64,000 nucleotides of DNA from Carya illinoinensis (lineage: Eukaryota; Streptophyta; Magnoliopsida; Fagales; Juglandaceae): positions 28,828,385 through 28,892,384 of the forward strand of contig NC_056759.1 in NCBI RefSeq assembly GCF_018687715.1, given 5' to 3'. Positions 10,651 to 57,585 of the stretch are shown here, piece after piece (position 1 is the first letter of the stretch; each line of letters begins with the position of its first letter). A program made the position numbers and the translations under genes. The notes below the pieces were generated by a model. The model worked only from the letters and a program-made list of their open reading frames with translations. It was not told where the DNA came from and searched no databases.

Positions 10651-10708
10651 AGTGAATGAATATCTCACCTCTCTCTCTCTCTCTCTGTTTTTGATTTCCG
10701 AAAAATTT

Positions 10709-10868
10709 AATTATAAGTATAATTATGTATTAATATATATATTAATTTAATATGATTAGTTAAAATGTAAATTTTATTAAAAATAATATTAATTTAAATT
10801 TTAAATATGAATGAATCAGTATTGATACGTAGATTAATGCATGACTTTACTTGTATATAACAAAACTC
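10709..10868 (+). repeat. MITE family M1, copy 3
   Basis: Carries the family core (ATTAATTTAAATTTTAAATA), the AGTATTGATACGTAGATTAAT right inverted region and the end TATATAACAAAACTC. It lies inside copy B of the local duplication and is absent from copy A. Confidence 0.65.
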
Positions 10869-16690: not shown

Positions 16691-16905
16691 CTCGTTTGTT
16701 TTTACAGATGAGATGAGATGAGATAAATTAAGATAAAAGTTAAAAATAAAATAAAATATTATTAGCATATATCTTTTTAATATTATTTTTATTTTAAAAT
16801 TTAAAAAAATTAAAATTTTTTATTTTATTTTGTACAAAAATTTAAAAAAATTATAATAATTATTTGAGATAACATGAGATGAGATGTGTTATGAAAACGA
16901 ACGAG
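16691..16905. mobile_element. MITE family M3
   Basis: Left end CTCGTTTGTTTTTACAGATG, right end reverse complement CTCGTTCGTTTTCATAACAC, a clear terminal inverted repeat. Just inside both ends are GAGATGAGATGAG-type motifs, and the interior is AT-rich with AAATTTAAAAAAATT runs. Same family as 39295-39520 and, inverted, 4495-4690 and 41618-41785. Confidence 0.65.
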
Positions 16906-22959: not shown

Positions 22960-23158
22960 CTACTCTTCCTTGGATTTGGAGAGAGCTTTCTTCCCCTGTC
23001 CAAGCATATAGCTGTACATGTTGAGGACTGCCTTGCCTGCACCATTACCATGCCATTTTATCAAACGCCTGTAAACGCCTCATTTTCGTCAGCAAACCCC
23101 TAATATAAGCTAATTTACCTTTGTCTGCTACGGGGCTCCATATCTTGTGAGGATAGCC
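22960..23158 (-). pseudogene. 3'-terminal two exons of a broken, unrecognised gene
   Basis: Minus-strand exon 23158-23119 (40 nt, preceded by ACATAG acceptor and followed by GTAAAT donor) reads GYPHKIWSPVADK. It joins in phase to exon 23036-22960 (preceded by GGTGCAG), which reads KAVLNMYSYMLGQGKKAL, then SKSKEE and a TAG stop at 22960-22962. The two good splice sites and continuous phase suggest a genuine gene end. I do not recognise the protein. No further exon is visible upstream: a solo LTR begins 121 bp away (23280-23642) and non-coding DNA follows. It may be a gene truncated by insertion or rearrangement, or the end of a gene with a very long intron. Confidence 0.45.
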
Positions 23159-23279
23159 CTATGTTTGCTTTGAAGGTAATAGCCATGGTGCAACACATTA
23201 TTACAGGTTTATATCTGTGTGTGTGTGTGTGAATTAAAAATGAAAATCAGGAAATCGAATTGCAATAGGTTGAGCTAAC

Positions 23280-23642
23280 TGTTAGAATTTGAAGAGTGAA
23301 AAGTGAAGATGAACATGAGCTAAGAAGAAAGGAAAAACTGAGAGATGAATTCTGATTCTCATTTATTTTCTCTAAGGGCGTACAGTGCTATATATACATA
23401 TAAGGCTGGTATCACAGCAGACAAGAATAAAGAATATTCTACCTACAACGTGTCCTATTCTACTGCAATGTACAGGCGTGGTGGAGCAGTGTAGTGGGCA
23501 TCAACATAAAGGAAAAACAGAAACAGAATGGTAGTGGTGCACTGCCATTGTACAGCTACAAGATCAGCAGAAGGCTGATCTCCTATGTCTCGGAAGCAGA
23601 GGAATCAGTAGCCTCACTTTCCTTCTTTGGCATTTCCTGAGA
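23280..23642 (-). mobile_element. Copia-like solo LTR
   Basis: On the minus strand the 363-bp segment starts TCTCAGGAAATGCC (expected TG mutated to TC) and ends CTTCAAATTCTAACA. The 5-mer CTAAC flanks it exactly at 23275-23279 and 23643-23647. Inside, in LTR order, lie TATATGTATATATAG (TATA box), a CACTGTACGCC start-like region and AAAATAAATGAG (polyadenylation-like). No internal retrotransposon domain, primer site or second LTR is adjacent. Confidence 0.65.
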
Positions 23643-23647
23643 CTAAC

Positions 23648-24118
23648 GGCTAGAAAATCCCGCAACATAAAAAGCATAGAAGGATATGTGGCCGTTTGGA
23701 TTAGATATCCATCCAACGGTCAGAATTTTCCCCACAAACAAAAATTAATCCTAAATCATATTCTTCATAATATATAAAAGGACTGACAAGCAACGGCTAG
23801 AAATTCCCCGAACATAAAATTGGCTAGGAATTTCAAAACGGAGAAGGGAGAAATATATTAACGGCTAGAATTTCCAAAAAGACTCGTTTCATATTGTTTA
23901 TTTTACAATGTTCCTCCGTAATTGCAAAACCTGTACCTATAGAGAGAAAGAAACACAGAAACTCAGAATCAGAGAGAGAGAGAGAGACTGCAATGTTTGG
24001 GTTCGATGAGCTGGCGACAACTGATTGTAGACGTTGAAGGAGGAGAGACGCACAACAGTTGTCTCCAAGTGTTTCTATCGCCCTTGTTGTTTGCTATTTC
24101 TCTCAATAACAAGAAGAG
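23648..24118 (+). promoter_or_regulatory. Possible promoter and leader with uORF
   Basis: The decamer ACGGCTAGAA occurs three times with spacers (about 23647, 23794 and 23861), a promoter-style repeat. ATATATAAAAGG at about 23770 is a good TATA box. At 23993 an upstream ORF of 14 codons (MFGFDELATTDCRR, stop) precedes the candidate start at 24119. These fit a plant promoter with a leader, but no downstream gene is secure. Confidence 0.35.
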
Positions 24119-24154
24119 ATGGCCTCTGGAGTTGTTCTCCTGCAACAGCAAGAG
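24119..24154 (+). CDS. Candidate first coding exon, gene not found
   Basis: ATG at 24119 in an AAGAAGAGATGGCC context reads MASGVVLLQQQE and is followed by GTACTT, a plausible donor after GAG. No matching downstream exon was found before the tandem array at 25.5 kb. Either the gene has a long intron crossing the array, is truncated, or the exon is fortuitous. Low confidence. Confidence 0.2.
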
Positions 24155-24189
24155 GTACTTCAAAATTTATTTTTTAGTTCTCAATCTAT

Positions 24190-25546
24190 CTCTGTTCATT
24201 CACTTTTTGATTTGTTGGTTTTATATGAAATGTACATTGGTTTTGTTTTAATTTCTTTCGCATCATTGGATTCAATTTGCAATCGGATTTCCTTTTATGA
24301 TATGATTTGCTTTCGATTTCTTTTTTTCTCTCTTTTTTTTTAAATCTATTTGCTGGACTTGTGACATCAGGGTTTTGATTTCCATAGGAGAAATCTGATA
24401 TAACATGAAGATTCTTAATTTTGCTAAACAATTTCGAGGGAGCCACATTGATGTAGTTTCTTTTGGTTTTTTGTAGTCAACTACAATTCCTAATTTGCTA
24501 ATTTCATTTTTTGTGCGAGGTTGCTTAACAAATTTTGTTTCTGGCTGCCGGAGTCTCAACTCTATAATGAAGAGAGAGGGAGAGATTGTTCTTCTGCTTT
24601 TTCACATGCTCACAGGTTGATATAATTCTTCCTTCTTCTCATCTCTCTTATTTGATCGCAATACTTGCCGTAAAAATTCTTGTAGTTCTGCCAAACTCAA
24701 ATATCCAACCCCCCCGTCCCTCGGTCGTCTCCCTTCGTCCCTCCTCTCTCTGTGTTAATATTTTTTCTAGTTTGTTCTTTTATTTCTAAATTTTCACATT
24801 TTTCATAAATTTTGTACATGTTGGTTAATTCAATAGGATTGGATTGCATCAGTAATGCAATGTCATTTTATCATCGACTTTTTTTTTTTGATTGTTATTC
24901 ATTTGATGTCATCATGAATGCTGAACAAAAAAGGGCATGAGTTTCTTTGTTAATTTTTGTGTCCTCACCTATTGAACCTAACTCTTCGGAAGATTAGCAA
25001 CTCTCACCATCATGATACCCACTTAATTGATTCTCTATTGCATTGAAGTGCGTTAGTGACATTTATCTTGCTGTGTTTTTTTAGACCAAATCTAGGTATT
25101 CTTATTTTTGTGTTGTCCTCTATAGTGGTCCTTTTTTGCATATATTTGTGTTGATAATAATCTCTTGAATTGTTAAAGCTTATGCATTTCTGTGGGGGGA
25201 AAAAGGGCCCGAATACATTTATTGATTACGTCAATAGTATAGAATACATCTTGCCGACAAATCACAACCTTTGTTTTTGTTAGAACCAAAGGGGTGCACG
25301 AAAGTTCATAAATTTTCCACAAAACAAAACGTGGCCTAGTTTGATGTCTCAGACAATGAAATCTATTTTTAATTAATTAAAAATAATTAGCCTGTATTTT
25401 TTACCCTTTATTCACTGGACATAAAATCCACTTTTATTACCTCAAAAATAATTATAATACTTTATTTTTTCCATGAAATCTTAAAAGGATAATAAGTAGG
25501 TTACATAGTTAATTACTTGGAATATGTAAAACTTCTAGATGCATGC

Positions 25547-25547: not shown

Positions 25548-25548
<1 letters not shown>

Positions 25549-25626
<78 letters not shown>
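25549..25626 (+). repeat. (TC)n microsatellite at the array's left end
   Basis: About 39 uninterrupted TC units, the longest in the window. It marks the start of the first array unit and occupies the same relative position as the (TC)n tracts at 27257, 30863 and 36351. Confidence 0.95.
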
Positions 25627-25628
<2 letters not shown>

Positions 25629-27254
25629 GCCCGCTTGAGTTTGGTTCTAGATGATTATGATTTTGGATACTTCTTTTTAGTTGGATTTAAGCAATTGTTT
25701 TGGTGGTGTTTTGGTGCTGGTTTGGGTTGTTGTAGAGGCTAAGCTATTGATGTCGAAGCTTGGTTGTGTGGGAAGGTTGGCCGTGAGGGCCAATTAACCC
25801 TACCACATACGATGTGTATAAATGTGTGCATGCGTGTATGTGTATTCATTGCATACATGTTTGTGTGTATATGTGCGTGCATGTGTGTGTGACTGCGTAA
25901 GTGGGTGCTTTTGCATGTGCATGCACATGGGTGTGTGTGGTGTGCGTGTGCGTGTGTATGTTCATGCATATGTGTTTGGTGTGGGTGTGTGTGTGTTTGT
26001 GTTTTGGGTGTGGGTTTGTGTTTGGGTGTGTGTGTGGTGGGTGTGTGCATGTGTATGTATGTACATGCATGTTTGTGTTTGTGTGTGAGTGCGCGCATGG
26101 GGTGTGTATGTACATGCATGTTTGTGTGTGTGTGTGTGTGTGCAAGTGCAAGTGCGAGTGCAAGTGCGCATGTGGGTGTGTGTGTGTATTTGTGTTTTGG
26201 GTGTGGATTTGTGTTTGTGTTTGGGTGCGTGTGTGGTGTGTGTGTGTGCGTGCATGTGTATGTATGTACATGTGTGTGTGTGTGTGTGTTTGTTTGTGTT
26301 TGTGTTTTAGGTGTGTGTTTGTGTTTGTGTTTGTGTTGTGTTGTGTGTGTGTGTGTGTGTGTGTGGATTAGTCTGTCTTGGTGTGTGTCCGTTTGGTTGT
26401 GTCATTGTGTTGGTGCGTGTGTGCATGTGGATGTGTATGTGTGACCATGTGAATGAGTGTGTATGCGTGCGGGTGTAAGAGAGAGAGCGCATGTGTGAGT
26501 GCACGTGTGTGCACTATTAGTAGGATATGCTTGCTTAACTGGGAGCTAGGGGTGAGGCTCTAGTTGGGCCTTACCATAACCAAAATTTACCTCGTCGGCT
26601 AAGCCTTACCTATATCTATATATACTTATGTATATAGTTTAATAAAATGGCGTGGTTTTGGGGATAAAAAATGGATTACTCCCCAAAAATGATGCCATTT
26701 TATCCTAACATTTGTTTTTTTTTTTTTTTTAAAATGTAACGATGATGTTTTGTGCAGACTCTTAATACCGAGTCTCTCAAAAACGAGATCGTTTCTTATT
26801 AGGATTATTGAAAACTTGAACCCCTCCTCCTTGCAGCAACTATCTCTCTTTCCCCTCGCTCTCTCTTTCTTGTCTCGATCTCTATTCCTTCATTTACCTC
26901 AATGGCTCAGCTCCCATCGTCTGTCGTATTTTGTCTCTCTTCCTCTCTCCATCAACCTCGGCCTCCCTACTCCAGGTATGTCTCTCTCTCTCTCTCTCTA
27001 CTAGAGTTTGGTTTTGGATGATTATCAGTTGGATTTAAGCATTTGTTTTGGCAGTATTTTGGGCGGTGTTCTACTAGTTATTTTTAAGGTGGTTTGGCTG
27101 TCATAGAGGCTTAATATTGGTGTCAAAGCTTGGGTAGGCGGGAAGGATGGCCACGGGATCCAATCAACCCCATGGCATCAATGTCTCAGACCCCCGCCGT
27201 CCCTCGTTGTCTCTCTCTTCCTCCCTCTGTTGACTTGGGCCCTCTTTCTCTAGG

Positions 27255-27303
<49 letters not shown>

Positions 27304-28638
27304 CAAAGTTTGGTTTTGGATAATTATGCTTTTGGATACTTCTTAAGTTTATTAGTTGGATTTAAGTGGTTATTTTTTGAGTATTTTGGACAGTGTTTTT
27401 TGGTGGTGACCCTACAACATATGGTGTGTTTATGTGTGTGTGCATGTGTGTATATTGCATGGATGTTGTTGCGTGTATGTGTGTCCATTTGTGTGTGTGT
27501 GACTGTGTAAATGGGAGTGTTTGTGTGTATGTGCACGCAAGTGGGTGCAATTGTGTGTGCATGCGCATAGGTGTCTATGTGGTTTGCGTGTACGTGTGTG
27601 TATGTGCATGCATTTTTGAGTGTGTGTGTGTGGTGTGGGTGTGCGAAACGTGTTTGTGTTTTTGGTGTGTGTGGGTACACGCTTGTGTGTATGTGTTTAT
27701 GCATTCTTGCTTGTGTGTGTATGTGTGAGTGCGCATGTGGGTTTGTATGTGTGTTTTTATGTTTTGTGTGTGTTGAGGAGTGCGTGAGTGTGTATGGCTA
27801 GTGTTGGTGTGTGATTATTTGAGTGTGTCATTGTGTGTTGGTGTGCGTGTGTGAATGTAGACGAGTATGAGTGCACTTGTGACTTGTGAGTGATTGTGTG
27901 TGTGTGTGTGTGCAGGTTCACAGAGTGTGTGGGTGTCTGAGTGTGAGTGGAGGCGGGGCTCTAGTGGGCCCTACCATGCCTAGGACTTACTTCATCTGCT
28001 CAACCTTGCCTATATATACTTGTATATTTAGAAAGAGTATATTTCTTTAATAAAACAATATGGTTTAAGGGACAATAAACTGATAATTACCAAAAAAGTG
28101 ACTTCGTTTTGTCTTTGCATTTGTTTTTCTTTTTAATGAAACGATTTTGTTTTGTTTAGCCCCCAGTCTACTAGTCTCTCCAAAACGAGATCGTTTCTTA
28201 TTAGGTATTATTGAAAACCAGAACCCTCATTCTAGCAGCAACTATCTCTCTTTCCCTCCTCTCTCTTTCCTATCTCAATCTTTATTCCTCTATCAACCTC
28301 AATATCTTAGGCTCCCACCGCTTGTCGTATTATCTCTCTGTTCCTCTTTCCGTCGACCTTGGCCTGCATACTCCAGGTATGTCTCTCTCTTTGCCAAAAC
28401 TTGATTTTTGATGATTATGATTTTTGGGTAGGTGGGAATGGCCAAAATCAGCCCCGTGGCATCAATGTCCCAGACCCCGGCCATCCCTCGTTGTCTCTCT
28501 CTCTCTTCCTCTCTCTATTCAACAGGCCATCTTGATCCAACTCTCTCCCTCTCTTTGCGCCAAAACATAAGTTGGATTTAAGCAGTTGTTTTGGCGGTAT
28601 GTTTTGGTGGTGAAACGGTATGTTTTGGTGGTGAAACA

Positions 28639-29219
28639 GGTTGTCATAGAGGCTGAGCTATTGGTGTCGAAGCTTCGGCGGGTGGGTATGGCAGCCATGT
28701 GGGCCAATCAACGCTGCAAGATACGGTGTATGTGTGTTTGCATGCACATGCACGTGTATTGCATGCACGTTTTGTATATATGTTTGTGTGCATGTGTGTG
28801 TGATTGCTTGAGTGGGTGCATTTATGTGTGTGCGGTATGCATTTATGTGTGTGTGTGTGTGTGTGTGTGTATGCGTGTGTGGTGGGCATTTATGTGTGTG
28901 TGTGCATGCATGTTTTTGTGTGTGTGTGCATGCATATTTAGGTGTGTGTGTGTGTGTGAGAATGCACATGTGGGTTTGTGTGTGTGGTGTGGGTGTGTGT
29001 TTGTGTTTTGGGTGTGTACTTGTGTTTGGCTGTGTGTGTGAATACAGGTGTGGATGTGTGTGTGTGTGTGTGTATGCGAGTGTGTGTGTGAGTCGGAGTG
29101 TGTGTTTTTGCTTTTATTTTGTGGATTTTGTTTTGTGGGGGTGTGCACGTGTGTGTGTGCGTGCGTGCATGTGGACATGTATGTGTGAGTGCGCGTGTGA
29201 GTATGTGTGCTTGCACATA

Positions 29220-29290
<71 letters not shown>

Positions 29291-29546
29291 CTGAAATGGG
29301 TTGTTTTGGTGGTGAAACAGGTTATCATAGAAGTTGAGCTATTGGTGTCGAAGCTTCAGCGGGTGGGTATGGCAGCCATGTGGGCCAACCAACCCTACGG
29401 GATACGGTGTGTGTGTGTGTGTGTGTGTTTGCATGCGCATGCACGTTTCGTATATATGTTTGCATGCATGTGTATGTGTGATTGCGTAAGTGGGTGCATT
29501 TATGAGTTTGCAGTGTGCATTTATGTGTGTGTGTGGTGTACGTTTA

Positions 29547-29579
<33 letters not shown>

Positions 29580-29844
29580 ACGTGTGGTGTGGGTGTGTGT
29601 TTGTGTTTTGGGTGTGTATTTGTGTTTGGCTGTGTGTGTGAATGCGCTTGTGGATGTGTGTGTGTGTGTGTGGATGTGGGTGTATGTGTGCAAGTGTGTG
29701 TGTGTGAGTCGGTATGTGTGTTTTTGTTTTTGTTTTGTGGGTTTTGTTTTATAGGTGTGTGTGTGTGTGGAGGTGTGCACGTGTGTGTGTGCATGTGGAC
29801 ACGTATGTGTGAGTGCGCATGTGAGTATGTGTGCTTGCACATGT

Positions 29845-29908
<64 letters not shown>

Positions 29909-30420
29909 CTGAAACGGGTTGTTTTGGTGGTAAAATGGGTTGTCATAGATGCTGAGCTATTGGTGTCGAAATTTCGGTGGGTGGGTATGGCAGCCATGTG
30001 GGCCAATCAGCCCTGCGAGATACAGTGTGTGTGTGTTTTCATGCGCATGCATGTGTATTGCATGCACGTTTTGTATATATGTTTGCGTGCATGTGTGTGT
30101 GTGATTGCGTAAGTGGGTGCATTTATGTGTGTGCGGTGTGCGTTTATGTGTGTGTGTATGTGCATGCATGTTTGTGTGTGTGTGTGTGAGAATGCACGTG
30201 GGTTTGTGTGTGTGGTTTGGGTGTGTGTTTGTGTTTTGGGTGTGTACTTGTGTTTGGCTGTGTGTGTGAATGCGCTTGTGGGTTTGTGTGTGTGCGTGCG
30301 AGTGTGTGTGTGTGCATGTGGACATGTATGTGTGAGTGCGCGTGTGAGTATGTGTGCTTGCACATGTGAGAGAGAGAGAGAGAGAGAGCGCGTGTGGATG
30401 TGTGCGTGTGTGTGAGTGCA
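28639..30420 (+). repeat. Second-order duplication inside the array
   Basis: The block GCTGAGCTATTGGTGTCGAA plus TG tract plus (GA)n recurs at about 28652, 29332 and 29950 (periods of about 680 and 618 bp), giving one array unit of 2.5 kb instead of 1.4 kb. Long GA tracts at 29223-29289 and 29849-29907 terminate the first two sub-units, and a shorter one at 30369-30387 the third. Confidence 0.8.
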
Positions 30421-30858
30421 TATATGGGTGGAAGAAAAAAAATACTTAACTGTGAGTCGGAGGCGGAGCTCTAGTTGGGCATCTGCCCCAGGATTTACCC
30501 TGTTCACTTGGCATTGCCTATATACTTATTAAGAAAAAGTAAATTTCTTTAATAAAACGACGTGGTTTGTTGGAAAATAAACGAATTATTACCCAAAAAT
30601 GACGTTGCTTTACCCTAACATTTGTGTTTTTAAAGTGATATGGTGTCATTTTGTGTAGAGTCATGTCTCGAGTCTCCCCAAAACGAGATCGTTTCTTATT
30701 AGGTATTAAAAGCCTGAACCCCTCGTCCTCACGACAACCGTCTCTCTTGCCCCCCTCTCTCTTTCATGTCACCTCCATTGACCTTAATATCTCAGGTGAG
30801 AATCTCAATCATATTCTCTCTCTGTTCCTCTCTTCGTCGACCTTGGCCTGCCTACTCT

Positions 30859-30912
<54 letters not shown>

Positions 30913-31659
30913 CAAAACATTAGTTCGATTTAACAGTTGTCTTGGCGGTATTTTGGGCAATGTTTTGGTGGTGAAATGGGTTGTCATAAACATAGCTTTT
31001 GGTTTCGAAACTTGGGTGGGTGGGTATGATGGTCGTAGGGGCCAATCAACCCTGCGACATGCGGTGTGTATGTGTATTTGCATGCATGTATGTGTGTGAA
31101 TTGTAGGCACATTTGTGTGTGTATGTGCTTGCATGTGTGTGTGACTGCATAAGTGGGTGTGTTTGCGTGTCAGTGCATAAGTGGGTGCATTTGAGTGTGC
31201 ATGAGCATGGATGTGTGTGTGGTGTGCGTTTATGTGCGTGCATATTTGTGTGTATGTGTGTGAATGTGCGTGTGGGTTTGTGTGTGTGTATGTGTGTGGT
31301 GTGGGTGTGTGTGTGTTTTGGGTGTGTTTGTGTTTGGGTGTGTGTGTGGGTGTGTGCATGTATTGTATGTGCATGCATGTTTGTGTGTATGTGAGTGCTC
31401 GTGTGGGTTTGTGTGTCTGTGTGTGGGTGTGTGTGCGAGTGGGTGTGTGTTTGTATTTGTGTTTTTTGACGGTGTGTGCACGTATGTGCGACCTATGTTG
31501 GTGTGTGCGTGTTTGGGTGTGTCATTGTGTGTTGGTGTGCATGTGTGCATGTGTGAGTATATGTGCTTACGGGTGAGAGAGAGAGAAAGAGAGAGAGAGC
31601 GTGTGTGGGTGCGTGTGTGCATATGTCAGTGCACATGTGAGTGCGCATATGGATGGATG

Positions 31660-31965
31660 GAAGAAATATGCTTAACTATGAGCTGGGGGCGGGGTTCTAG
31701 TTGGACCCTATATATATCCCATTCACTCAGCCTTGCCTATATATATACTTAGATATTAAGAAAAAGTAAATGTTTTTTATAAAGCGACGTGGTTCGTTGG
31801 AACGCATATGAATGGAAGAGAAATATGCTGCTTAACTATGAGCCGGGGGCAGGGTTCTAGTTGGACCCTACAATGCTGAGGATTTACCCTGTCCACTTGG
31901 TTGCTTAGATATTAAGAAAAAGTAGATGTTTTTTTACAAAGCGACGTGGTTTGTTGGACAATAAA
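31660..31965 (+). repeat. Local duplication of the unit-end block
   Basis: The block reading ATATGCTTAACTATGAGC, GGTTCTAGTTGGACCCTA and ATATTAAGAAAAAGTA occurs twice (about 31667-31800 and 31828-31965), whereas other units have it once. Confidence 0.7.
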
Positions 31966-33976
31966 CGAATTATAACCTAAAAATGACATCGTTTTATCTC
32001 AACATTTATTTTTTTTAAAATGAAACGATGTCGTTTTGTGTAGACTCTCAGTCTCTAATCTCCCCAAAACGAGATCGTTTCTTATAGGTAATTTTGAAAA
32101 CCTGAACCCCTTTTCCTCACAGCAACTATCTCTCTTTCTTGTCTCAATCTCTATTCCTCTATCGACCTCAATATCTCAATCTCCCATCGTCTATCATATT
32201 TTCTGTCTGTTCCTTTCTCTGTCATCCTCGGCTTGCCTACCTTTGCTATGTCTTGCTCTTTATCAGAGATTGGTTTTTTATGATTATGATTTTAGATAGT
32301 CTTTTGTTTATCAGTTGGAATAAGTTGGGTGTGTGTGAAACGAGTTCTCGTAGAGGCTGAGCTATTGGTGTCGAAGTTTGGGAGGGTGGGTGTGCGGCCT
32401 GGGGCAAATCAACCCTGTAGCATACAATGTGTATGTGGGTGGGCGTGCATGTATGTGTTTGTATGTGCGAGCATGCGTGTGTGTGACTGCATAAGTGGGT
32501 ACGTTTGCGTGTCTGAGCGCAAGTGGGTGCATTTGTGTGTGCATACGCATGGATGTGTGTGTGGTGTGCATGTATGTGTGTGTGTGTATGCGCATGCATG
32601 TTTGTGTATGCGTGTGTGTGAGTGCGCATGTGGGTTTGTGTGTGTGTGGTGTGGGTTAGTGTGTTTGTGTTTATTTTTTGGGTGTGTGTGTGTGTGTGCA
32701 CGCTTATGGGTTTGTGTGTGTGTGTGTGTGTGGGTGTGTGTGAATGTTTGTATGTATTTGTGTTTTTTGTGTGTGGAGATGTGCAGTGTGTTGATATGTG
32801 TGCATTTGGGTTGTCATTGTGTGTTGGTGTGCATGTGGACGTGTATGTGTGAGTGCGCGTGTGAGTGAGTGTGTGTGGTTGGTGTGAGAGAGAGAAAACG
32901 TGTGGATGTGTTCGTGTGAGTGCACATATGAGTGGAAGAGAAATATGCTTAATTGGGAGCCATGGGTGGGGCTCTAGTTGGGCCCTATGATGCCCATGAT
33001 TTACCCCATCCATTCGGCCTTGCCTATATATATATACTTATATATTAAGAAAAAGTATATTTCTTCAATAAAATGACGTGGTTTTGGGGACAATAAACGG
33101 ATTATTATGTAAAGATGATGTTGTTTTTTCTTTATATTAAAAAAAAAAAATGAAATGATGTCGTTTTGTGTAGACTCCCAGTCTCGAGTCTTTCCAAAAT
33201 AAGAGCGTTTCATATTAGTTAGCAATTGTCTCTCTCATGTCTCAATCTTTATTCCTTCATCGACCTCAATGTCTCAGGCTCCCACCGTCTATCGTATTCT
33301 CTTTGTTCCTCTCTCTCATTGACCTAGGCCTGCCTACTCCAGGTATGTCTCTCTCTCTCTCTCTCTCTCTCTTAGAGTTTGATTTTTGATGATTATGGTT
33401 TTGGATACATCTTTTGTTTTATCAGTTGGATTTATGCATTTGTTTTGGCGGTATTTTGACTAGTGTTCTACTAGTCGTTTTTAAGGTGGTTTGGCTCTCA
33501 TAAAGGCTTACTATTGGTGTAAAAGCTTAGGCAAGTGGGAACAACCATGGGGTCCAATCCACCCCATGGCATCAATGTCTCGTCTCCCTCTCTGTCTCTC
33601 TCTCTTCCTCTTTCTATTGACCTCGGCCTTCCTGCTATCTCTCTCTCTCTACCAAAAATATCAGTTGAATTTATGCAATTGTTTTGGCAATATTTTGGTG
33701 GTAAAACGGGTTGTGATAGAGGCTGAGTTATTGGTGTCGAAGCTTGGATAAGTGGGTATGGCGGTCGTGGGAGCCAATCAACCCTACAACATACGGTTTG
33801 TATATGTGTGTGCATGTGTGTGTATTGCATGCACGCTTGTGTGTGTATCTGCATGCCTGTGTGTGTGTGACTGCATAAGTGGGTGTGTTCGCGTGTCTGT
33901 GCTCAAGTGGGTTCATTTGTGTGTGCATGCTCATGGGTGTCTATGTGGAGTACGTGTATATGTGTGTATGTGCATG

Positions 33977-33978
<2 letters not shown>

Positions 33979-34022
<44 letters not shown>
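33979..34022 (+). repeat. Pure (TG)n tract
   Basis: About 22 uninterrupted TG units within the TG-rich part of array unit 5. Alternating purine-pyrimidine of this length is a classic Z-DNA-prone sequence. Confidence 0.9.
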
Positions 34023-34024
<2 letters not shown>

Positions 34025-36347
34025 TGCATGTGTGGGTTTTTGTGTATGTGTGAGTGGTGTGGGTTAGTGTATTTGTGTTTGGGTGTGTGTATGTGTATGC
34101 ATGTTTGAGTGTGTGCGAGTGTGTGCTTGGCTTTTTGTGTGTGTGTGTGTGCGAGTGTTTGTGTTTTGTGAATGTGTTTGTGTGGAGGTGCACGCCCGTG
34201 TGTGCAGCCTGTGTTGGTTGTGTGTGCTTTTAGGTGTGTCATTGTGTGTTGATATCTGCGTGTGTGGACAAATGGACGTGTGAGTGTGTGTGAGTGAGTG
34301 TGGGTGCTTGCAGGTGTGAAAAAGTGCGGGTGTGTGCATGTGTGGGTGCACGTGTGAGTGCACATATGAGTGAAAGAGAAAAATGCTTAATTGGAAGCTG
34401 GGGGCGGAGCTCTACTTGGGCCTTATGATGCCCAGGATTTACCCCGTCCACTTGGCCTTGCCTATATGAGTATATATTTAGAAAAAGTAAATTTCATTAA
34501 TAAAATGACATGGTTTGTTGGACAATAAACGAATTATTACTTAAAAATGATGTCTTTTTATCCTAACATTTGTGTTTTTAAAATGAAATGATGTCGTTTT
34601 GTGTACAGTCCCATCTCAAGTCTCCCTAAAACAAGATCATTTTTTATTAGGTATTGTTGAAAACTTGAACCCCTTGTCCCCCAACAATTGTCTCTCTTCC
34701 CCCCCCCCCCCCCAATTTCTCTTTCCTATCTAAATCTCTATTCCTTAATCGACCACAATATCTCAGGCTCCCATCGTCTATCATATTCTCTCACTGTTTC
34801 TCTCTCTCTCTCTATAGAACTTTGCCTGCCTACTCCATGTATCTCTCTCTCTCTCTCTACCAAAACATCAATTGGATTTAAGTAGTTATTTTGGGCGGTG
34901 TTTTGGTGGTGAAACTGGTTGTTATAGAAGCTAAGCTATTGGTTTCGAAGCTTGGCCGGGTAGGTATGACAATCGTGGGAGGCCAATCAACTTTGTAGCA
35001 TATGGTGTGTGTGTGTGTATGTGCTTGCATGTGTGTGTGACTACGTAAGTGGGTGCGTTTATGTGTCTGAGCATGTGCATGTGCATGGATGTGTGTGTGG
35101 TGTGCATTTATGTGTGTGTATGTGCATGTGTATCACTCGGGTCCAATATCCAACTATTTTTTTAAATTTTTTTAGATTTATACAGATGAAAAGCCCACTA
35201 GAGATTTACGAATATCTTTAGTGTGTGTGTGTGTGTGAGGTGTGGGTGTCTGTGTTTGTATCTGTGTTTTGGGCTTGTGTTTGTGTTTGGGTATGTGTAT
35301 CCATGTGTGTATGCGCATGCATGTTTGTTTATGTGCGAGTGCACGTGTGAGTTTTTGTGTGTATGGGTGTGTGTGTACGTGTGGGTATGTGTGTTTGTAT
35401 TTGTATTTTGTAGGTGTGTGTGTGTGTGGAGGTGTGCACGTGTGTGTGGCATGTGTTGGTGTGTGTGCATTTGGATGTGTCATTGTGTGTTGATGTGCAT
35501 GTGTGTGCCTGTGGACGTGTATGTGTGAGTGAGTGTGTGTGCTTGCGGGTGAGAGAGAGAGAGAAAGCGTGTGGGTGAATGCATATATATGGGTGGAAGA
35601 GAAACATGCTTAAATGGGAGCCGGGGGCAAGGCTCTAGTTGGGCCCTATGATGCCCAAGATTTACCCCATCCATTCGACCTTACCTATACATACTTATAT
35701 ATTAAGAAAAAGTAAATTTCTTTAATAAAACGACATGGTTTGTTGGATAATAAACGAATTATTACTAAAAAGTGACGTCGTTTTATCTTAACATTTGTTT
35801 TTTAAAATGAAATGATGTTGTTTTGTTTAGACTCTCAGTCTCGAGTTTTCCCAAAACGAGATCGTTTCTTATTAAGTATTGTTGAAAACCCAAACCCTTT
35901 GTCCTCACAGCAACTGTGTCTCTTCCCCCCTCTCGCTTTCCTGTCTCAATCTCTATTCCTCCATCGATCTCAATGTCTCAGTCTTCCATCATCCATCGTA
36001 TTCTCTCTCTGTTATTCTCTCCGTCAACCTCAGCCTTGCCTACTCTAGGTGTGTCTCTCTCTCTCTCTGCCAAAGTTTAGTTTTTTATTATTATGATTTT
36101 GGATGGGTCTTTTGATTATTAGTTGGATTTAAGTATTTGTTTAGGCTATATTTTGGGCAGTGTTCTAGTGGTTGTTTTTAAGGTGATTTGGCTATCGTAG
36201 ACGCTTAATATTCATGTAGAAGTTTTGGGTAGGTGGGAAGCACGGCCGTGGGGTCCAATCATGTGGCGTCAATGTCTCAAACCCCCGCCATCCCTTGCTA
36301 TCTCTCTCTCTTCCTTTCTCTGTTGATCTCGACCTTCCTGCTCCAGG

Positions 36348-36350
<3 letters not shown>

Positions 36351-36398
<48 letters not shown>
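36351..36398 (+). repeat. (TC)n microsatellite in the last array unit
   Basis: About 24 uninterrupted CT units following CTCCAGGTAT, the same junction seen in the other units. Confidence 0.95.
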
Positions 36399-36402
<4 letters not shown>

Positions 36403-37300
36403 CAAAACATCAGTTGGATTTAAGCAGTTGTTTTGACGATATTTTGGGCGGTGTTTTGGTGGTGAAACATGTCATCTTAGAGGCTAAGCTATTAGTGTCA
36501 AAGCTTAGGCAGGTGGGTATGACGACCTTGGGCCAATCAACCCTGCGACATACTGTGTGTTTGTGTGTGTGCATGTGTGTATTGCATGCACTTTTGTGTG
36601 TATATGTGTGTGCACGTGTGTTTGTGACTGAGTAAGTAGGTGCGTTTGCATGTCTATGCGCAAATGGGTTTATTTGTGTCTGCATGCACATGGGTGTATA
36701 TGTGTGGTGTCCGTGTATGTGTGTGGCATGCATGCATGTTCGTGTGTGTGAGTGCACGTTTGGGTTTGTGTGTGTGTGGTGTCGGTGTTTGTGTTTGTGT
36801 TTTGGGTGTGTGTTTGTGTTCGGGTATGTGTGGGTGTGTGCGTGTGTATGTGCATGCAGGTTTGTGTGTGTGTGAATAGGTAAGTGGGTGTTTGCGTGTC
36901 TGCACGCAAGTGGGTGCATTTGTGTGCATGCACATGGATGTGTATGTGGTGTGCATGTATGTGTGTGTGTATGTGCATGCATGTTTGTGTTTATGAGTGC
37001 GCATTTGGGTATGTGTGTGTGCGTGTGAATGTGCATGCATGTTTGATTGTATGTGAGTGCACATGTGAGTTTTTGTGTGTGTGCGTGTGTGGGTGTGTGT
37101 TTGTATTTGTGTTTTGTGGGTGTGTGTGGGACATGTGTTGGTGTGTGTGCGTTTGGGTGTGTCATTGTTTGTTGGTGTGCGTGTGTGTGCCTATGGATGT
37201 GTATGTGTAAGTGAGTGTGTGTGTGCTTGTAGGTATAAGAGAGAGAGAGAGAGAAAGCGCTTGTGTGTGCGTGTGTGTGAGTGTGCATATGGGTGGAAGA

Positions 37301-39294: not shown

Positions 39295-39520
39295 GCATGG
39301 ATTAGATTAGGAGATGAGATGAGATTATTTTATTTGAAAGATAAAAGTTAAATAAAATATTGTTATTATTGTTTTGAAATTTGAAAAAATTGAATTGAGA
39401 TTTGAAAAAGTTAAATTGTTTATTATGTTTTTGTAGGAATTTGAAAAAATTGTAATGATAAGATAAGATGAGATGAGATGAATTTATATAAGGTGAGATC
39501 ACCTGCCAATCCAAACCAGG
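39295..39520. mobile_element. MITE family M3
   Basis: GGATTAGATTAGGAGATGAG at the left and CTCACCTGCCAATCCAAACC... at the right frame an AT-rich interior with GAGATGAGATGAG motifs at both ends. A direct repeat of about 28 bp (GTGTACAAYGACTAGGGYTA..) lies just outside at 39257-39284 and 39534-39561. That is longer than a target-site duplication, so the flank itself was duplicated. Confidence 0.6.
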
Positions 39521-41617: not shown

Positions 41618-41785
41618 GAAGAGATATAAAATTTTCATTTCATCTTATCTCATTATTATAATATTTTTAAATTTTTACATAAAATATAATAAATAATTCA
41701 ATTTTTTTAAATTTTAATTCAATTTTTTTAAAATTTTAAAATAATAATAATATTAAAAAATAATATTTTAAACATTAAAAATTCT
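41618..41785 (+). repeat. MITE family M3, degenerate copy
   Basis: Close match to 4533-4690 in the same orientation (TTATTATAAT, ACATAAAATATAATAAATAA, AAAAAATAATATTTTAAAC) and inverted relative to 39295-39520. It ends about 190 bp upstream of the epoxide hydrolase start, so it may overlap that gene's promoter. Confidence 0.55.
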
Positions 41786-45480: not shown

Positions 45481-45535
45481 TAAAAGAAAAAATTTAGTTG
45501 CAATTACTCTTAATAAATCTTTTTTAAAAAAATTT

Positions 45536-45694
45536 AGTTGTAAGCATAACTGCATACTAATAAGTGCACTAATATAATATGATTAATCAAAAAATAAATT
45601 TTGTTAAAAATAATATTAATTTAAATTTTAAATATAAAAAAATTAATATTGATACACATATTATAAACACATTTACTTATGCATAACAAAACTC
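45536..45694 (+). repeat. MITE family M1, copy 4
   Basis: Shows the family core AATATTAATTTAAATTTTAA, the right inverted region ATTAATATTGATACACATAT and the end GCATAACAAAACTC. Confidence 0.65.
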
Positions 45695-47878: not shown

Positions 47879-50800
47879 TCATGAGACCTTTCGATTTAGG
47901 TTCTTCAATCCACAACCAATACATTTAAGTATAACAGTCCCTGTGGATGGATCTGGCTTTATAACAAATTTAACACCAAGGAAATCTCTTATGTGTCTAA
48001 GCATTTCTATTCCATATGGTGAAAGCTTTGCAGAGCGAATCTTTGAAACATCTTGTGGACATAATGCACAAAGAAGAAATAACAATCCCTACAAAACAGT
48101 CATAACAGCAAAGATAATTAGAGGGGATAATGGAAACAAAATAAATAAATAAATAAGAACAGAATCGATCATTGGCAGCATATGCATTTGAGTTCTTTTC
48201 TCCTTTTTTTTAATTCTTATTAGCATTAAAATTCATACTGGAACCCAGATTCTCTTGTGCAAAAGCATTCAGTATCAACCACTTCAAGGATTACGGCATC
48301 GGAATTAGTTTTGGGATCAAAAGTCCATCTGACAATCATTTCCAAATATTGGCTGCTGAGATATTTCAGCTTCGTTTTGCAATTAACGTCATATGCACCA
48401 AAAAAAAAAAAAAAAAAAAATTCTAAGGTGATAGATGGGGAATTGTTTTTTATTCCAACTTTGAAAACAACATTAGGATGGATCTATTCTCAAACAAGGA
48501 AACCCGAATTTTGGTATCAGGGATTCTCAACAAAAAGTTTCTGTATGACACCAAATTAGAGGAATTTCAACCACAATGGTAGAATGATTGGCACTACCTT
48601 AAGGCCTTTACATCATTCTTCAAATAAAAGGTCCACTCATAACTCCTCAAAACTAACATAAGAAGAGGGCAAGTTCAACAGTTCTCACTAAATCTGCCTT
48701 AAGAAATTTACAGTTTTTCCAATCAAAAAGAAAGTTGACTGTTTTCGGTCATTTCACAAACCACTGAAAGGGATTGAACTATTTTCATAAACTTTGTATT
48801 AATTTATGCATGCTTCTTAAAGCCCTTTAGCTAATTTCACCAAATGAGGTACAATTAGTCTGTAGGTTGGAATATTTACTAGGTTTTAATGAGTTGTATC
48901 CATAAACGAAAAGGATTTCGACAAGTGGATTAACTGATTTTCATGTGCTTTCTGAAAGCTGCCTTTAAGAAGGTCCTGAACAGAATTTACCAGTAAAAAC
49001 CGAAAGGCATGCTAAAAGGCCTTAGAAACAACATAACCGCATATTAAGGCCTTGAAAATCACAATGGTTGCTTTCAAACTCAATTGTATGGATTTTGCCG
49101 AATCAGAATATAAAGTATTAAGTGCTGATTCAGCAAAATCCATACCATTGAGTTTGAAAGCAATCATTGTATTTAATGAAATTAACCTGCTAGATTACAT
49201 TAAGAACTTTATTATCTTGATGCAGAGAACCAACAAATATTTTCTTTCAACTGTTTATACCAATCAGGATAGAGCTTATTTGTAGCCTTTTTTTCCTTGT
49301 TCTTAGTCATTTGTATTGAGAAGAAAGATGAAAGAAATGGACTAGTAGAGGGCAAGGGGATTGAGCTTTGTCATCTCAAGCACCAAAACATAATAATGCG
49401 CACAGCCAAATCACACCTCTGATGATATATATATATATATATATATATTTTTTAAAAAGATTGATTCTATTAATGATTAAGAGGAAGAAACTCCACTACA
49501 CAAGATGTGTACCTTAAATCCACCTAATAATCAAATCCTGAAGATTAGAACCAGAAAGGGTAACTTTCAGATTTGCATTAAAGTCAATGCATCTATTTAA
49601 TAAATTAAACTTTTCACAATCGCAATTTGAATTAAGACAGCAGATTAACAAGGACCTAATAAAAAAACAAGGACCTAATTAGTTTTTTATGAGTAATATA
49701 AAAACAAAGACCTAATTAATTACAAGGTCAAAAACCCAATACAAGTATTGGTGTTAACGATCTTAGACCATTAATTCATCATGAGCTCCAGCTCAAAGCA
49801 CAACTACTCCCCAGATAAATGGGGTGTCCGTGAAAGTGATTCAAGACCAATTGGTTGCATGCATTAATAAAAAATTAAAACAAAAATTATTTTAAACCTT
49901 TCAGAGGAATTAGAAGACAATAATCCATGGCCAAAATTGTTATGAAATTTTTTTGATAGGTTAAAAAAAAAAAAAAAAAAAAAAGAGAGAGAGAGAGAGT
50001 TATGAAATTATGAGTTAAAACTTTTCACAACAGGAAAAAGACAAAAAGACATATATCTTCATCTAACTTTGAGGCTTTGCCTATGTTATGTTGGTTACAA
50101 GGATGTGTCAGTAGTGTAACTGATACAAACAACTGCCATATATCATACAAGCATCAATAGCACTATATGAATTTCTAGCATCCAAAACAAGCAAAAGGCC
50201 AATCTAGTGGCAAACATATCCAAAAAGAGACATCTTAACCAAGCATTTACTTGAAGACGAATCTAGTCCAGACTCCGCTAGTAAAACAATTTAGTCCAAT
50301 GACCTAGAAGCATAAAGAAGATGAAAAACAGCAACTATGATGGTATGCAAACCTGATGTGTCGAATCTACAACGCCGCCTTGCTCGATTTCCCCAAGTAG
50401 AATAGAAGCAATTTGCCCGCCAACATCTTCAGGAGGCATCAACTCTTTCTTCTCATCTTCAATATCACCTGTTTCTTCTTCCCGTGCATAAGCAATAGCC
50501 ATATCAGCGGAGATGAAGCAACCAGCATTAGTTTCCGCAACAAGTGAAATTCCATAACCAGGGGAGCTGCAATCAAATCATTGTTATCTAGATGAGCCAA
50601 ACTACTTGCTTAATTAACATGAAAAAACACCTCGATGGCATTAAAATATATTTTCAAATTAAACAACTACTGCTATCTACCTAAAAGACATACCTTCCAG
50701 CTTGTGTGCCTGCCTTATGATCAGTAAAGATGTGAACATCAGGAATAAAGCGATTAAAAATGCCACGAGCAGCATGTATCATGGTATTTTCAAACTGGGA

Positions 50801-51874: not shown

Positions 51875-52002
51875 TCTCTCACTCTCTCTCTCTCTCTCTC
51901 TCTCTGTGTGAGCTCAAAGAGAGATCACCTACCCTAGGATTCGATTAGTTACACCAAAAGTGAAAGATTGGCTAATAGGTCACTTTAATTAAAGGAAAAA
52001 TC

Positions 52003-52161
52003 TAATTATAAATTCATATACGAATGTAGATTAATTAATTTAATGTGATTGATTAAAAAATAAATTTTATTAAAAATAATATTAATTTAAATTTTAAATA
52101 TAAATAAATTAATATTAGTATGCAGATTAATATACGACTTTACTAATATATAAAAAAACTC
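52003..52161 (+). repeat. MITE family M1, copy 5
   Basis: Family core AATATTAATTTAAATTTTAA, GATTAATATACGACTTTACT near the right end and a degraded terminus ATATAAAAAAACTC. It lies about 130 bp upstream of the RCL1-like start codon, in its probable promoter. Confidence 0.65.
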
Positions 52162-52587
52162 TTAATTAAAACTTGAACTCCATGTTAGATTAGTCATTGC
52201 ACTCCCTATAACAATAAAATATTATTATTATTATTTATTTATTTTTTAATGCAATTTTTTATTTATTTAAATACTTTTTTATTTTTATTTTCATAAATTT
52301 TAACAATCATTTTCTTTTTCATTTTCACAATTTAACGATCTATGCAATTAGCTTCTCTAGTTAAGCAACCAATTGTGCTACTTTGATTTTCATTTTCACA
52401 CTCCAACAATATAATTTCTGTTCAAAATTATCACAAAACACATTTTAACACCCATATATAGCATTCTGCCCACATATCACATTATCGCTCAAATTATCAT
52501 TCTTCACATTCTGCCCACATATAACAGTAGCATATAGTTGCTCAATTGAAGAATGGATCACATCAAAGCAAAATTCAGCTTCAATGA

Positions 52588-53926
52588 TGTTGAACTCAAG
52601 ATTTCAAGTTTTGTGTAATTATATATTTACACATGGATTTTGATAATAACAAATGAATTTAAAGAATAAAAAAGTTTCAAGCTCAAGTTGTCTACACAAT
52701 GGAGTCAAGCACATCAAGGAAACAAGCATGAGCAAGAAGGGAACAAGTTCACATTAAAATTATAGAGTAATGTTGTAAATCTCTTCAAAATTCAAAATTA
52801 GGATTAATGCTCAAAATTAATATTTTATCATAAAGCATTAAAATACATTTTCCACATGTGCATGAATATTTTTGAAAATTAAATTTGAAAATTTTGAAAG
52901 ATAATTGATTGTCATCTTTTGCATGTGCATATCTTGATTAAAGGGTTGAATTTTGAAAATATTAAAGATGATTGATTGTCATCTTTCACATGTGCATATT
53001 TTATTTGAATATTTTCAAAAGTGATTGATACTTTTTTGGACTTATACAAAAGGTAGATGATTTTGTTTGAAAAATTTGAAAAGTAAAGTGTGCTCATTTT
53101 GTCATATGCAAAAAGTAAAAGATTAGGTTTGAATTTTTTGAAAATGAAAGTGTGTTCATTTTGTCATATGCCAAAAGTAAAAGATTAGGTTTGATTTTTT
53201 TGAAAAAGTAAATGATGTTGTCTTTGACAATTGAAAAAGAAGAACCTTTTATTTGAATTTTTTGAAAAAAATGAATGATGTTGTCTTTGACATGTGAATC
53301 TTGTTAAATTTGAATATGAAGTCTCATATGCCTATAAATAGATCATTTGAGAGCTTCACATTCACAACATCGAGAGCATACAACATTCATTCAAAACTTT
53401 CATTCTCTCTTCTCTAAGCATTGAGCCTTAATCCTTATTCATTTTGAGAGATATAGTTTGTGCTGTATTGTTCTTATTTCACTCATTGAGGAGTGTTTTC
53501 TGATAACCTACCCACTATCAGTTTTTGTATCAGAAAAAGGGTGTGTATAACCCTTGTACGTATAGAAAGTATTCTATACGGGGAATAGTTGAATCACCAC
53601 TTGTAAGGTGATTGCAAGTGTAGAGGGTGTTCTACACGGATCCTTTGTAGCGGTGTTGTTCAAAGGTGTAATAGGTTTCTATCTCCACCTGAAGGAGGTT
53701 GAATAGTAAATTTGGGAATTCTCAAGGGGTAGCTTGAGGCGAGGACGTAGGCAGTGGGGCCGAACCTCGTTAACATACTGAGTTTGCTTCTCTCTTACCC
53801 TTACTCTTTATATTTATTGTTATTTCATATTTTGTTTATATTTTATATTATATATTTGATTTATAATTGTTATTTTTTTAATACAACTCAATTCACCCCC
53901 CTCTTGTGTTAGTCATCTGGGCAACA
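52588..53926 (+). mobile_element. Solo LTR of a Copia (SIRE/Maximus-like) retrotransposon
   Basis: The 1339-bp segment begins TGTTGAACTCAAGATTTCAA and ends CATCTGGGCAACA, so its ends form TGTTG...CAACA. The 5-mer AATGA is repeated exactly at 52583-52587 and 53927-53931. Near the right end the AACTCAATTCACCCCCCTCT motif is one I know from LTR ends of large Copia elements. No primer-binding site, gag-pol or second LTR follows, so the element was reduced to a solo LTR by recombination. Confidence 0.85.
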
Positions 53927-57107: not shown

Positions 57108-57585
57108 TAAGGGTGACACGGATCTAAGCGTATTCACCACAAGCTATGTTAAAAAGATGCCACGGACCTAAGCGTGGTTCACTATATATTAAGTGAAGCA
57201 CGGACCTAAGTGTGTTTTACTCTAAGTTATGTTAAGGGTGACACGGACATAAGCGTGTTCATCACAAGTTATGTTAAGGGTAACACAGACCTAAGTATGT
57301 TCATCATAAGATATGTTAAGGATAACACAGACCTAAGCGTATTCATAACAAGTTATGTTAATGATGACACGGACCTAAGCATGCTCATCGCAAGTTATGT
57401 TAAGGGCGACATGAACTTAAGTGTGTTCACCACAAATTATGTTATGCGGTGCCATAGGTTTAAGCATGGTTCACCTTATGTTAAGTAAAATACAAATTCA
57501 AGCGTGTTTTACTCTATGCTATGATAAGCTATGGGGTGCCATAGACTCAAGCATGGTTCACTATATAATAAGTAAATTACAAGAC
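57108..57585 (+). repeat. 45-bp minisatellite, about ten copies
   Basis: Units of the form GACACGGACCTAAGCGTGTT followed by CATCACAAGTTATGTTAAGG. Because the period is divisible by three, one frame (57210-57488) reads as 15-residue repeats beginning SYVKGDTDLSVFIT. Divergence rises at both ends. Degenerate repeats of similar period precede it (56760-57080). Confidence 0.8.

What the first reader, a model, noticed from the sequence alone, without database searches (positions are those of the whole stretch)
25548..37300. An 11.7-kb composite array whose units mix TG tracts, GA/CT tracts and a conserved promoter-like block
This is not a simple microsatellite. About seven units of 1.1-2.5 kb repeat a fixed order of at least six distinct blocks, three of them non-repetitive (the AAAACGAGATCGTTTC block, the GCTGAGCTATTGGTGTCGAA block and the GGGGCGGGGCTCTAGTTGGG block). 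Low-complexity DNA and unique-like DNA have been amplified together as a higher-order repeat. I do not know a described family with this architecture.
Basis: seen in the sequence. Interest (0 to 1): 0.8.

Follow-up and report, generated by a model that had tools for sequence, protein, structure and literature searches.

The report
Repeat array beside broken cyclin copy
In pecan, a decayed piece of a cell-division gene (cyclin B1) is followed by a long, old array of promoter-like and TG/CT-rich repeats, and the same arrangement sits on four chromosomes; it looks like a gene-derived repeat locus, not a known satellite or a working gene.

Summary
The array is real. Window 25548-37300 holds seven full copies and one partial copy of a ~440-bp promoter/5'UTR-like block (P; 74-83% identical), 13 copies of an intron-like block (C) and TG-rich tracts. 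The window is pecan chromosome 8. Scored genome matches to the unit lie only on chromosomes 3, 4, 8 and 11 (12 and 7 candidates unscored). At all four, the main array follows the same module: a decayed, intron-containing partial copy of a cyclin B1 gene, from promoter and exon 1 to the end of exon 4 (control 126). Unit subtypes pair across chromosomes, so a diverged array predates copying of the locus. P shows no slow-evolving core; two translated array frames found no homologue. Most likely: a non-coding composite array amplified locally beside a gene fragment, largely neutral. Unresolved: the source of P, how the loci spread, and whether the inherited cyclin promoter is active. Another copy of the module is followed by an array with different unique blocks.

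The parts
23094..23287 (.). Left end of the DNA that this window shares with the other three loci (79-85% identical); no blastn match to the cyclin gene
   Evidence: (alignments to C11, C3 and C4 all start at 23094)
23640..23960 (+). Decayed cyclin B1 promoter: six AACGG/CCGTT cores in 23601-24020 (0.24 expected), two of the six identical at all four loci; TATATAAAAGG at 23771, present at all four array loci but not in three more distant module copies; differs less among the four loci than the module mean
   Evidence: profile match to the C14 cyclin B1 gene, L042:611-708, E 5e-8
23961..24154 (+). Cyclin B1 5'UTR and exon 1 remnant (start codon 24118; MASGVVLLQQQE, donor GAG|GTACTTC; the pecan cyclin B1 reads MASRAVVPLQKPRG)
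   Evidence: E 6e-56 for L042:734-1236
24155..25507 (+). Rest of the cyclin-derived module (intron 1 and degenerate DNA; exons 2-3 not recognised)
25508..25546 (+). Remnant of the end of cyclin B1 exon 4
   Evidence: profile match to L042:2355-2444, E 3e-10
25548..25626 (+). Pure TC tract that opens the array; lines up with the CT tract of cyclin B1 intron 4 and also with the TC tract of the unit, so the two look fused here
   Evidence: at C4 and C11 0.7-0.9 kb separate module end and first partial P
25548..37300 (+). Composite tandem array, about eight units of P, C, TG tract and GA tract
26540..26985 (+). P block 1
27945..28385 (+). P block 2
30455..30868 (+). P block 3
31680..31802 (+). Partial P block (model 1-131), local duplication
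31840..32252 (+). P block 4
32952..33350 (+). P block 5
34392..34845 (+). P block 6
35618..36056 (+). P block 7
28611..30387 (+). Local triplication of C-TG-GA without P (77-83% identical)
25606..25830 (+). First C block; further C blocks start at 26979, 27278, 28538, 29299, 29916, 30887, 32246, 33348, 33609, 34840, 36053 and 36377
36574..37300 (+). Last TG tract; the array ends here, before a P block; sequence beyond is not shared with the other loci in the DNA held

Best explanation
A partial, unprocessed copy of a cyclin B1 gene (promoter to end of exon 4 and some DNA beyond) lost its cyclin-box half. Behind it stands a composite segment made of a promoter/5'UTR-exon-like block of unknown source, an intron-like block and a TG-rich tract. 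That segment amplified in tandem, most likely by unequal exchange and slippage between the CT, GA and TG tracts. The locus, with an already diverged array, was then copied so that it now stands on chromosomes 3, 4, 8 and 11, and each array went on duplicating and losing units. In this window the module's CT tract and the unit's TC tract look fused, as if a deletion had removed the DNA that separates them at C4 and C11. The array makes no recognised protein and is probably largely neutral. Shown: the array, its four-locus distribution, the cyclin module before each main array, the common starting phase at C3, C4 and C11, and unit subtypes shared between loci. Inferred: the amplification mechanism, the fusion, the way of spread, neutrality.
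For: Unit matches lie only on C3, C4, C8 and C11 (82 matches, 40 of 52 candidates scored; 48 matches, 40 of 47 scored). The same module precedes the main array at all four loci, and arrays at C3, C4 and C11 begin with the last ~100 bp of P followed by C; C8 begins with TC then C. The module profile matches the C14 cyclin B1 gene collinearly at promoter, exon 1 and exon 4/intron 4: 17.9, 176.8 and 25.1 bits, against at best 5.7 bits in 156 kb of control DNA. That gene holds the best Cyclin_N match of the genome. Tree of 46 P copies: strict, well supported sister pairs C11_50364/C3_11064 and C11_57521/C3_10269, C3_12152 beside the C11 clade in which 49289 branches first, and, in the second arrays, C3_31334/C4_10883 and C3_35099/C4_14076; order along the arrays agrees in both sets. 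No slow core in P. The best other copy of the epoxide-hydrolase-like gene is on C7 (91%), and the pecan paralogue of the CDK5RAP1-like protein bears a chromosome-7 locus name, so C3, C4 and C11 do not look like the genome-duplication partners of this spot.
Against: The source of P was not found, so its origin as a gene 5' end rests on appearance. The module's promoter differs less among loci than the module mean (0.089 against 0.123, permutation p 0.002), which could mean retained function; but the module's far end is about as low (0.091, p 0.057) and only 2 of the 6 C8 AACGG/CCGTT cores are identical at all four loci, no more than other pentamers there (30%). Clock readings clash: modules of the four loci differ by K 0.107-0.163, but C8 units by 0.196-0.328 although six of the seven C8 units group together, weakly (81/94); the array evolves faster, or modules were homogenised or constrained. 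The smaller second arrays on C3 and C4 have no module of their own in the DNA held. Right flanks are not shared, so no ancestral right junction was seen. With so few pairs, agreement in order is suggestive only.
Confidence: 0.62

Rival explanations
1. Transposon-borne: a Helitron, Pack-TYPE or other element captured a cyclin B1 5' fragment plus a second gene's 5' end (P), spread them, and tandem repeats grew inside the copies.
For: The cyclin module has 47 matches at 22 places when matches within 20 kb are merged, some short, and of these only C14 has a Cyclin_N match nearby (61 matches); gene-fragment capture by plant transposons is documented (PMC13317346, passages).
Against: No common termini seen: homology between C11, C4 and C3 continues left of the 23094 equivalent and ends at different points, and right ends differ. 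Module copies differ by up to K 0.37, old for one burst.
Confidence: 0.2
2. Functional array: each P is a live promoter with a non-coding first exon, or the cyclin-derived G2/M promoter drives a long non-coding RNA through the array.
For: P resembles promoter, 5'UTR and donor; the module at the four loci has 4-6 AACGG/CCGTT cores in its first 420 bp and an identical TATA box, and its promoter part is among the least changed.
Against: No constrained core in P; only 2 of 6 C8 cores identical at all four loci, and the TATA box is absent in three other module copies; no homologue for two translated array frames; no Rfam match; donor consensus altered in copies 3, 4, 6 and 7, GT itself lost in copy 4; exon 1 of the module has a 4-bp insertion at C11. 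No transcript data were available.
Confidence: 0.1
3. Ordinary satellite DNA that happens to lie beside a pseudogene.
For: Tandem, non-coding, spanning some 38-50 kb at C4 and C11, other insertions included.
Against: Four chromosomes only in the scored matches, units of 1.1-2.5 kb with variable content and 17-26% divergence in this array.
Confidence: 0.04
4. Assembly artefact.
For: None found.
Against: All P copies distinct (74-83%); related arrays on four chromosomes with shared subtypes; contig N50 26.5 Mb in the assembly it matches.
Confidence: 0.02

Closest known systems
Duplicated (unprocessed) partial pseudogenes, here of cyclin B1
   Same: The left module keeps promoter, 5'UTR, exon 1, intron 1 start and exon-4 end in gene order.
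   Different: A pseudogene does not explain the 11.7-kb composite array behind it.
Satellites grown from tandem sub-repeats inside LTR retrotransposons (Lathyrus sativus, PMC7004042; abstract and outline seen)
   Same: Short local arrays at dispersed places that expand at some of them.
   Different: Here the anchor is a gene fragment, not an LTR retrotransposon, and the arrays are low-copy and diverged.
Gene fragments captured by plant Helitrons and Pack-TYPE elements (PMC13317346; passages seen)
   Same: Fragments of one gene's 5' part dispersed in the genome, joined to other DNA.
   Different: No shared element termini seen; older and larger (comparison with typical sizes is recalled).
Genes with tandem alternative first exons, each with its own promoter (recalled; a chelicerate Dscam paper with tandem 5' cassettes appeared in a search listing, PMC4835542)
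   Same: Promoter plus exon plus donor repeated head to tail.
   Different: No common downstream exons and no constraint found.

Membership tests
Unprocessed partial copy of cyclin B1 (left module) | Collinear similarity to exons and introns of a cyclin B1 gene | tested here: met
   control
Unprocessed partial copy of cyclin B1 (left module) | Loss of coding capacity | tested here: met
   No cyclin box: a memory-typed probe gave only three chance matches (E 8.8-9.3) in the loci then held, and no Cyclin_N match lies near the four loci; 4-bp insertion in exon 1 at C11
Satellite DNA | Long homogeneous arrays of high copy number | tested here: not met
   this genome only, not all candidates scored
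Satellite DNA | Head-to-tail tandem arrangement | tested here: met
Helitron / Pack-TYPE element | Captured gene fragments in dispersed copies | tested here: met
   47 matches, 22 places after merging within 20 kb; one with a cyclin body
Helitron / Pack-TYPE element | Fixed element termini or target-site duplications | tested here: inconclusive
   Edges differ between the four loci; most module places were not fetched
LTR retrotransposon-derived repeat | Direct terminal repeats flanking the array | tested here: not met
   Self-BLAST of the window: left-right matches are only short dispersed repeats away from the array's edges (e.g. 16710-16886 with 39311-39480, and a ~170-bp repeat at 0.7-10.9 kb and 45.5-52.2 kb)
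Alternative-first-exon gene | Common downstream exons shared by loci | tested here: not met
   Right flanks not shared within the DNA held
Alternative-first-exon gene | Transcripts from each unit | not testable with these tools
   no RNA data

The most novel reading that the evidence does not exclude
The cyclin-derived module is an active G2/M (MYB3R-type) promoter that reads into whatever lies downstream, and the region behind its exon 4 is a repeated seed of tandem amplification: at least two composite arrays with different unique blocks (type A here, type B at C11:33.365 Mb) arose behind the same module, giving fast-changing, cell-cycle-timed non-coding transcription units on several chromosomes.
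Probability: 0.08. Interest if true: 0.75.

Novelty: new variant of a known kind. Interest (0 to 1): 0.45.

Why it matters
It shows a route by which promoter-like, low-complexity DNA becomes a large locus-specific repeat: not from a centromeric satellite, but behind a broken gene copy, with the same gene fragment standing before different arrays at different places. It offers related arrays on four chromosomes of one tree for studying how composite tandem repeats are born and decay, and it raises a testable question: whether an inherited mitotic promoter still fires into them. It also warns annotators that first-exon and promoter predictions there are probably false.

Tried and rejected
Coding array: no candidate protein shared three 5-residue words with a C-block frame; 2599 candidates shared words with an alignment of five P-region translations but none reached E 10. 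RNA family: no Rfam match at gathering threshold in the window or in eight module loci; no tRNA. LTR element: no direct repeats at the array's edges. P as a piece of cyclin B1: no convincing match (best E 0.046, in the CT tract). P as a dispersed element: no scored match outside the arrays. P core under selection: not supported. Papers: ten counted searches, several with capped listings, listed no paper that by title or abstract describes this array; the two searches by sequence letters listed none about it. Most subscription papers are not held. Plant repeat libraries and other Fagales genomes were not available.

Not settled: where the second CDK5RAP1-like copy lies on chromosome 7, and hence an empty-site test; that search did not complete. 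The genome-wide count of type-B units likewise, and a C-block search (not repeated).

Results against my reading: the clock conflict between module and array; low change in the module promoter; second arrays without a module of their own; background-level TG-tract pairs; exon-4 alignment at C11 no better than the null; weak TG-tract matches between the type-B array and type-A regions, which may be composition or kinship.

Dropped before counts: of 108 P hits (they include minus-strand hits of P's own near-palindromes) 46 were kept for the tree, those covering at least 280 model positions at E below 1e-25.
Full report
What is there. The window is pecan (Carya illinoinensis): its CDK5RAP1-like protein is identical to CIPAW_08G137300 over 98% of the query, and the tool places the window at contig C8:28828385-28892384 of a 674.4-Mb genome in 17 contigs. 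Size and protein match the 'Pawnee' assembly (674.27 Mb, contig N50 26.5 Mb; PMC8257795, passages); the identification with that assembly is inference. The array lies between the CDK5RAP1-like gene on the minus strand (about 17.7-21.6 kb; UPF0004, Radical_SAM and TRAM matches) and an alpha/beta hydrolase gene on the plus strand (from about 42 kb; 'epoxide hydrolase' is recalled).

Anatomy. Each unit runs on the + strand: P (about 440 bp: G+C-rich start with TTGGGCC, AT-rich stretch, ACGT-core near-palindromes, CT-rich 5'UTR-like exon ending in a donor-like CAG|GTATGT in the best copies), TC tract, C block, TG-rich tract of 0.4-0.7 kb, short GA tract. Seven P copies align at 73.8-83.2% pairwise identity, K2P 0.197-0.331. 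Internal branches are short against tips, a near-star tree. The donor consensus is altered in copies 3, 4, 6 and 7, and GT itself is lost in copy 4. Local events include nested C duplications in units 1, 5 and 7, a triplication at 28.6-30.4 kb and a partial P at 31680. TG tracts share sequence beyond composition for many pairs: 22 of 45 exceed the maximum of 150 order-6 null draws, 4 are at background.

Other places. A 601-bp unit piece gave 82 matches in the whole genome, all on C3, C4, C8 and C11 (40 of 52 candidates scored); P alone gave 48, all on the same four (40 of 47 scored). Profile searches of the fetched regions map main arrays at C11:8.9935-9.0432 Mb, C4:14.4937-14.5318 Mb and C3:46.0235-46.0315 Mb (minus), and smaller second arrays at C4:14.4639-14.4676 and C3:46.0456-46.0506 Mb. 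One 10-kb stretch of the regions read N, so counts are lower bounds.

The module. Window 23094-25600 matches all three other loci piecewise at 76-89% identity (the stretch 23288-23637 is not matched), whereas the right flank shows no shared DNA beyond the last unit except short dispersed repeats and CT runs. Arrays at C3, C4 and C11 start in the same phase, with the last ~100 bp of P followed by C. Between module end and that first partial P lie about 0.74 kb at C11, 0.85 kb at C4 and 0.27 kb at C3, against none at C8, where the CT tract passes straight into C. At C4 the separating DNA holds the 'type-B' fragment described below and a TG tract. So the fusion of CT tract and C at 25548-25626 looks like a deletion peculiar to C8, not the ancestral junction.

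What the module is. Searching 23638-24894 gave 47 matches (28 of 28 candidates scored), 22 places when matches within 20 kb are merged, some short. One, at C14:28084662-28084894, lies 1.4 kb before the best Cyclin_N match of the genome on the same strand (E 1.2e-32; 61 matches, 109 of 109 candidates scored). That locus (L042) shows a complete-looking cyclin B gene with exon 1 MASRAVVPLQKPRG, a destruction-box-like RRVLQDIGNL (motif name recalled) and the cyclin box. A profile of seven modules matches L042 collinearly: promoter 611-708 (E 5e-8), 5'UTR-exon 1-intron 1 734-1236 (E 6e-56), exon-4 end plus intron-4 CT tract 2355-2444 (E 3e-10). The best match in 156 kb of control DNA, shuffles included, was 5.7 bits; CT tracts alone gave up to 4.5 bits at the exon-4 end of the profile, against 25.1 bits for L042. 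Local alignment of L042 exon 4/intron 4 scores 122 for C8, 112 for C3, 132 for L037, 88 for C4, 72 for L040, 64 for L041 and 43 for C11, against a null of mean 20 and maximum 64 (500 draws); for C8, C3, C4 and L037 much of the score is the CT run itself, L041 equals the null maximum and C11 lies inside it. No other of the 22 module places has a Cyclin_N match nearby (searches compared), so they look like 5' fragments.

Promoter remnant. The first 420 bp of the C8 module hold six AACGG/CCGTT cores, the six other modules 2-5, and 340 bp of the cyclin gene 4; 0.24 per 420 bp are expected from window frequency. AACGG is the core of MSA elements bound by MYB3R factors in G2/M genes (PMC10905365, passages). 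Among the four loci the promoter part differs less (0.089) than the module mean (0.123; permutation p 0.002); so, nearly, does the far end (0.091, p 0.057), and 5'UTR plus exon 1 does not (0.141). Only 2 of the 6 C8 cores are identical at all four loci, against 30% of all pentamers in that stretch; the TATA box is identical at the four array loci and absent in the C12, C11:33.36 and C4:32.39 copies. The permutation ignores clustering of rates. I take this as a weak hint, not proof, of function.

History. Of 108 P hits I kept the 46 that cover at least 280 model positions at E below 1e-25 and built a tree. Units cluster by chromosome (10 label changes against a shuffled mean of 23.5), but well supported groups cross chromosomes: sister pairs C11_50364/C3_11064 and C11_57521/C3_10269; C3_12152 beside nine C11 units among which 49289 branches first; sister pairs C3_31334/C4_10883 and C3_35099/C4_14076; C11_58520 beside seven C4 units. 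Along the arrays the order of the first three, and of the two C3/C4 pairs, agrees. So several unit subtypes existed before the loci separated. With 1.60e-9 substitutions per site per year for pecan (PMC9899254, passages) module pairs among the four loci give 33-51 Myr, and the five cross-chromosome unit pairs just named (49289 standing for its clade, C11_58520 left out) 62-93 Myr; the discrepancy makes these crude. The Juglandaceae duplication has Ks 0.36-0.48 in the six species of that paper other than Rhoiptelea. The partner of this neighbourhood appears to be chromosome 7, by the alpha/beta hydrolase (C7:8095171-8095458, 91%, best of 20 other matches) and by the chromosome-7 locus name of the pecan CDK5RAP1-like paralogue (P0018), so the C8 copy does not look like one half of a genome-duplication pair with C3, C4 or C11.

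A second array type. At C11:33.36 Mb a module copy is followed by a different array (L041): CT-rich, TG-rich and unique blocks at spacings of about 1.2-1.8 kb. Its unit profile matches the end of cyclin B1 exon 4 (E 6e-8). No P or C match was found in L041, though its TG-rich part gives two weak matches to the C11 and C4 array regions (69-73%, E 3e-7 and 9e-7). So two composite arrays with different unique blocks stand behind copies of the same module.

Function. I find no sign of protein, known RNA or constrained core in P (site rates are weakly autocorrelated, 0.19). I therefore read the array as mostly neutral, formed by exchange and slippage at the low-complexity tracts; this mechanism is inferred from junctions inside or beside such tracts (for example GA followed by C at 29289 and 29907), not shown. 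The live alternative is transcription from the inherited cyclin promoter, for which no RNA data were at hand.

Noticed in passing
L041:1-4000 (C11:33365001-33369000): A different composite CT/TG/unique array behind another copy of the cyclin module; its unit includes the end of cyclin B1 exon 4.
   Followed up: partly
L020:23-301 and L019:9755-9973 (C4); L009:8930-9110 (C11, by eye): Type-B fragments between cyclin module and type-A array.
   Followed up: partly
C3:46045643-46050617 and C4:14463883-14467603: Second, smaller type-A arrays without a cyclin module of their own in the DNA held; some of their units pair with each other in the tree.
   Followed up: partly
L018:2431-3769: Receptor-kinase-like open frames (name recalled, no family search) on C4 between two stretches that are adjacent at the C11 locus; about 90 bp of C11 match both sides, as if a deletion between repeats had removed the gene there.
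   Followed up: no
window 23094-23287: Stretch shared by all four loci but without blastn match to the cyclin gene; minus strand reads a short frame (MAITFKANIGLSSQDMEPRSRQR) up to a GT donor.
   Followed up: no
window 35131-35220: A non-TG insertion of roughly 85-90 bp inside a TG tract.
   Followed up: no
window 39363-39489 and 41624-41750 (inverted); also 16710-16886: Copies of a small AT-rich repeat, two of them in opposite orientation right of the array; MITE-like.
   Followed up: no
window 668-838, 3131-3298, 10701-10868, 45528-45694, 51996-52161: Five same-strand copies of a ~170-bp dispersed repeat, about 71-83% identical.
   Followed up: no
window 52586-53932: A 1.35-kb repeat 96% identical to one inside the C11 array region and 82% to one on C4: likely mobile-element copies.
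   Followed up: no
window 57107-57582: Short tandem repeat (self-matches at offsets of about 82-293 bp) whose + frame reads SYVKGDTDLS-like repeats.
   Followed up: no
window 50338-50577: RNA 3'-phosphate cyclase insert domain (PF05189), minus strand: likely an exon of an RCL1-like gene (name recalled).
   Followed up: no
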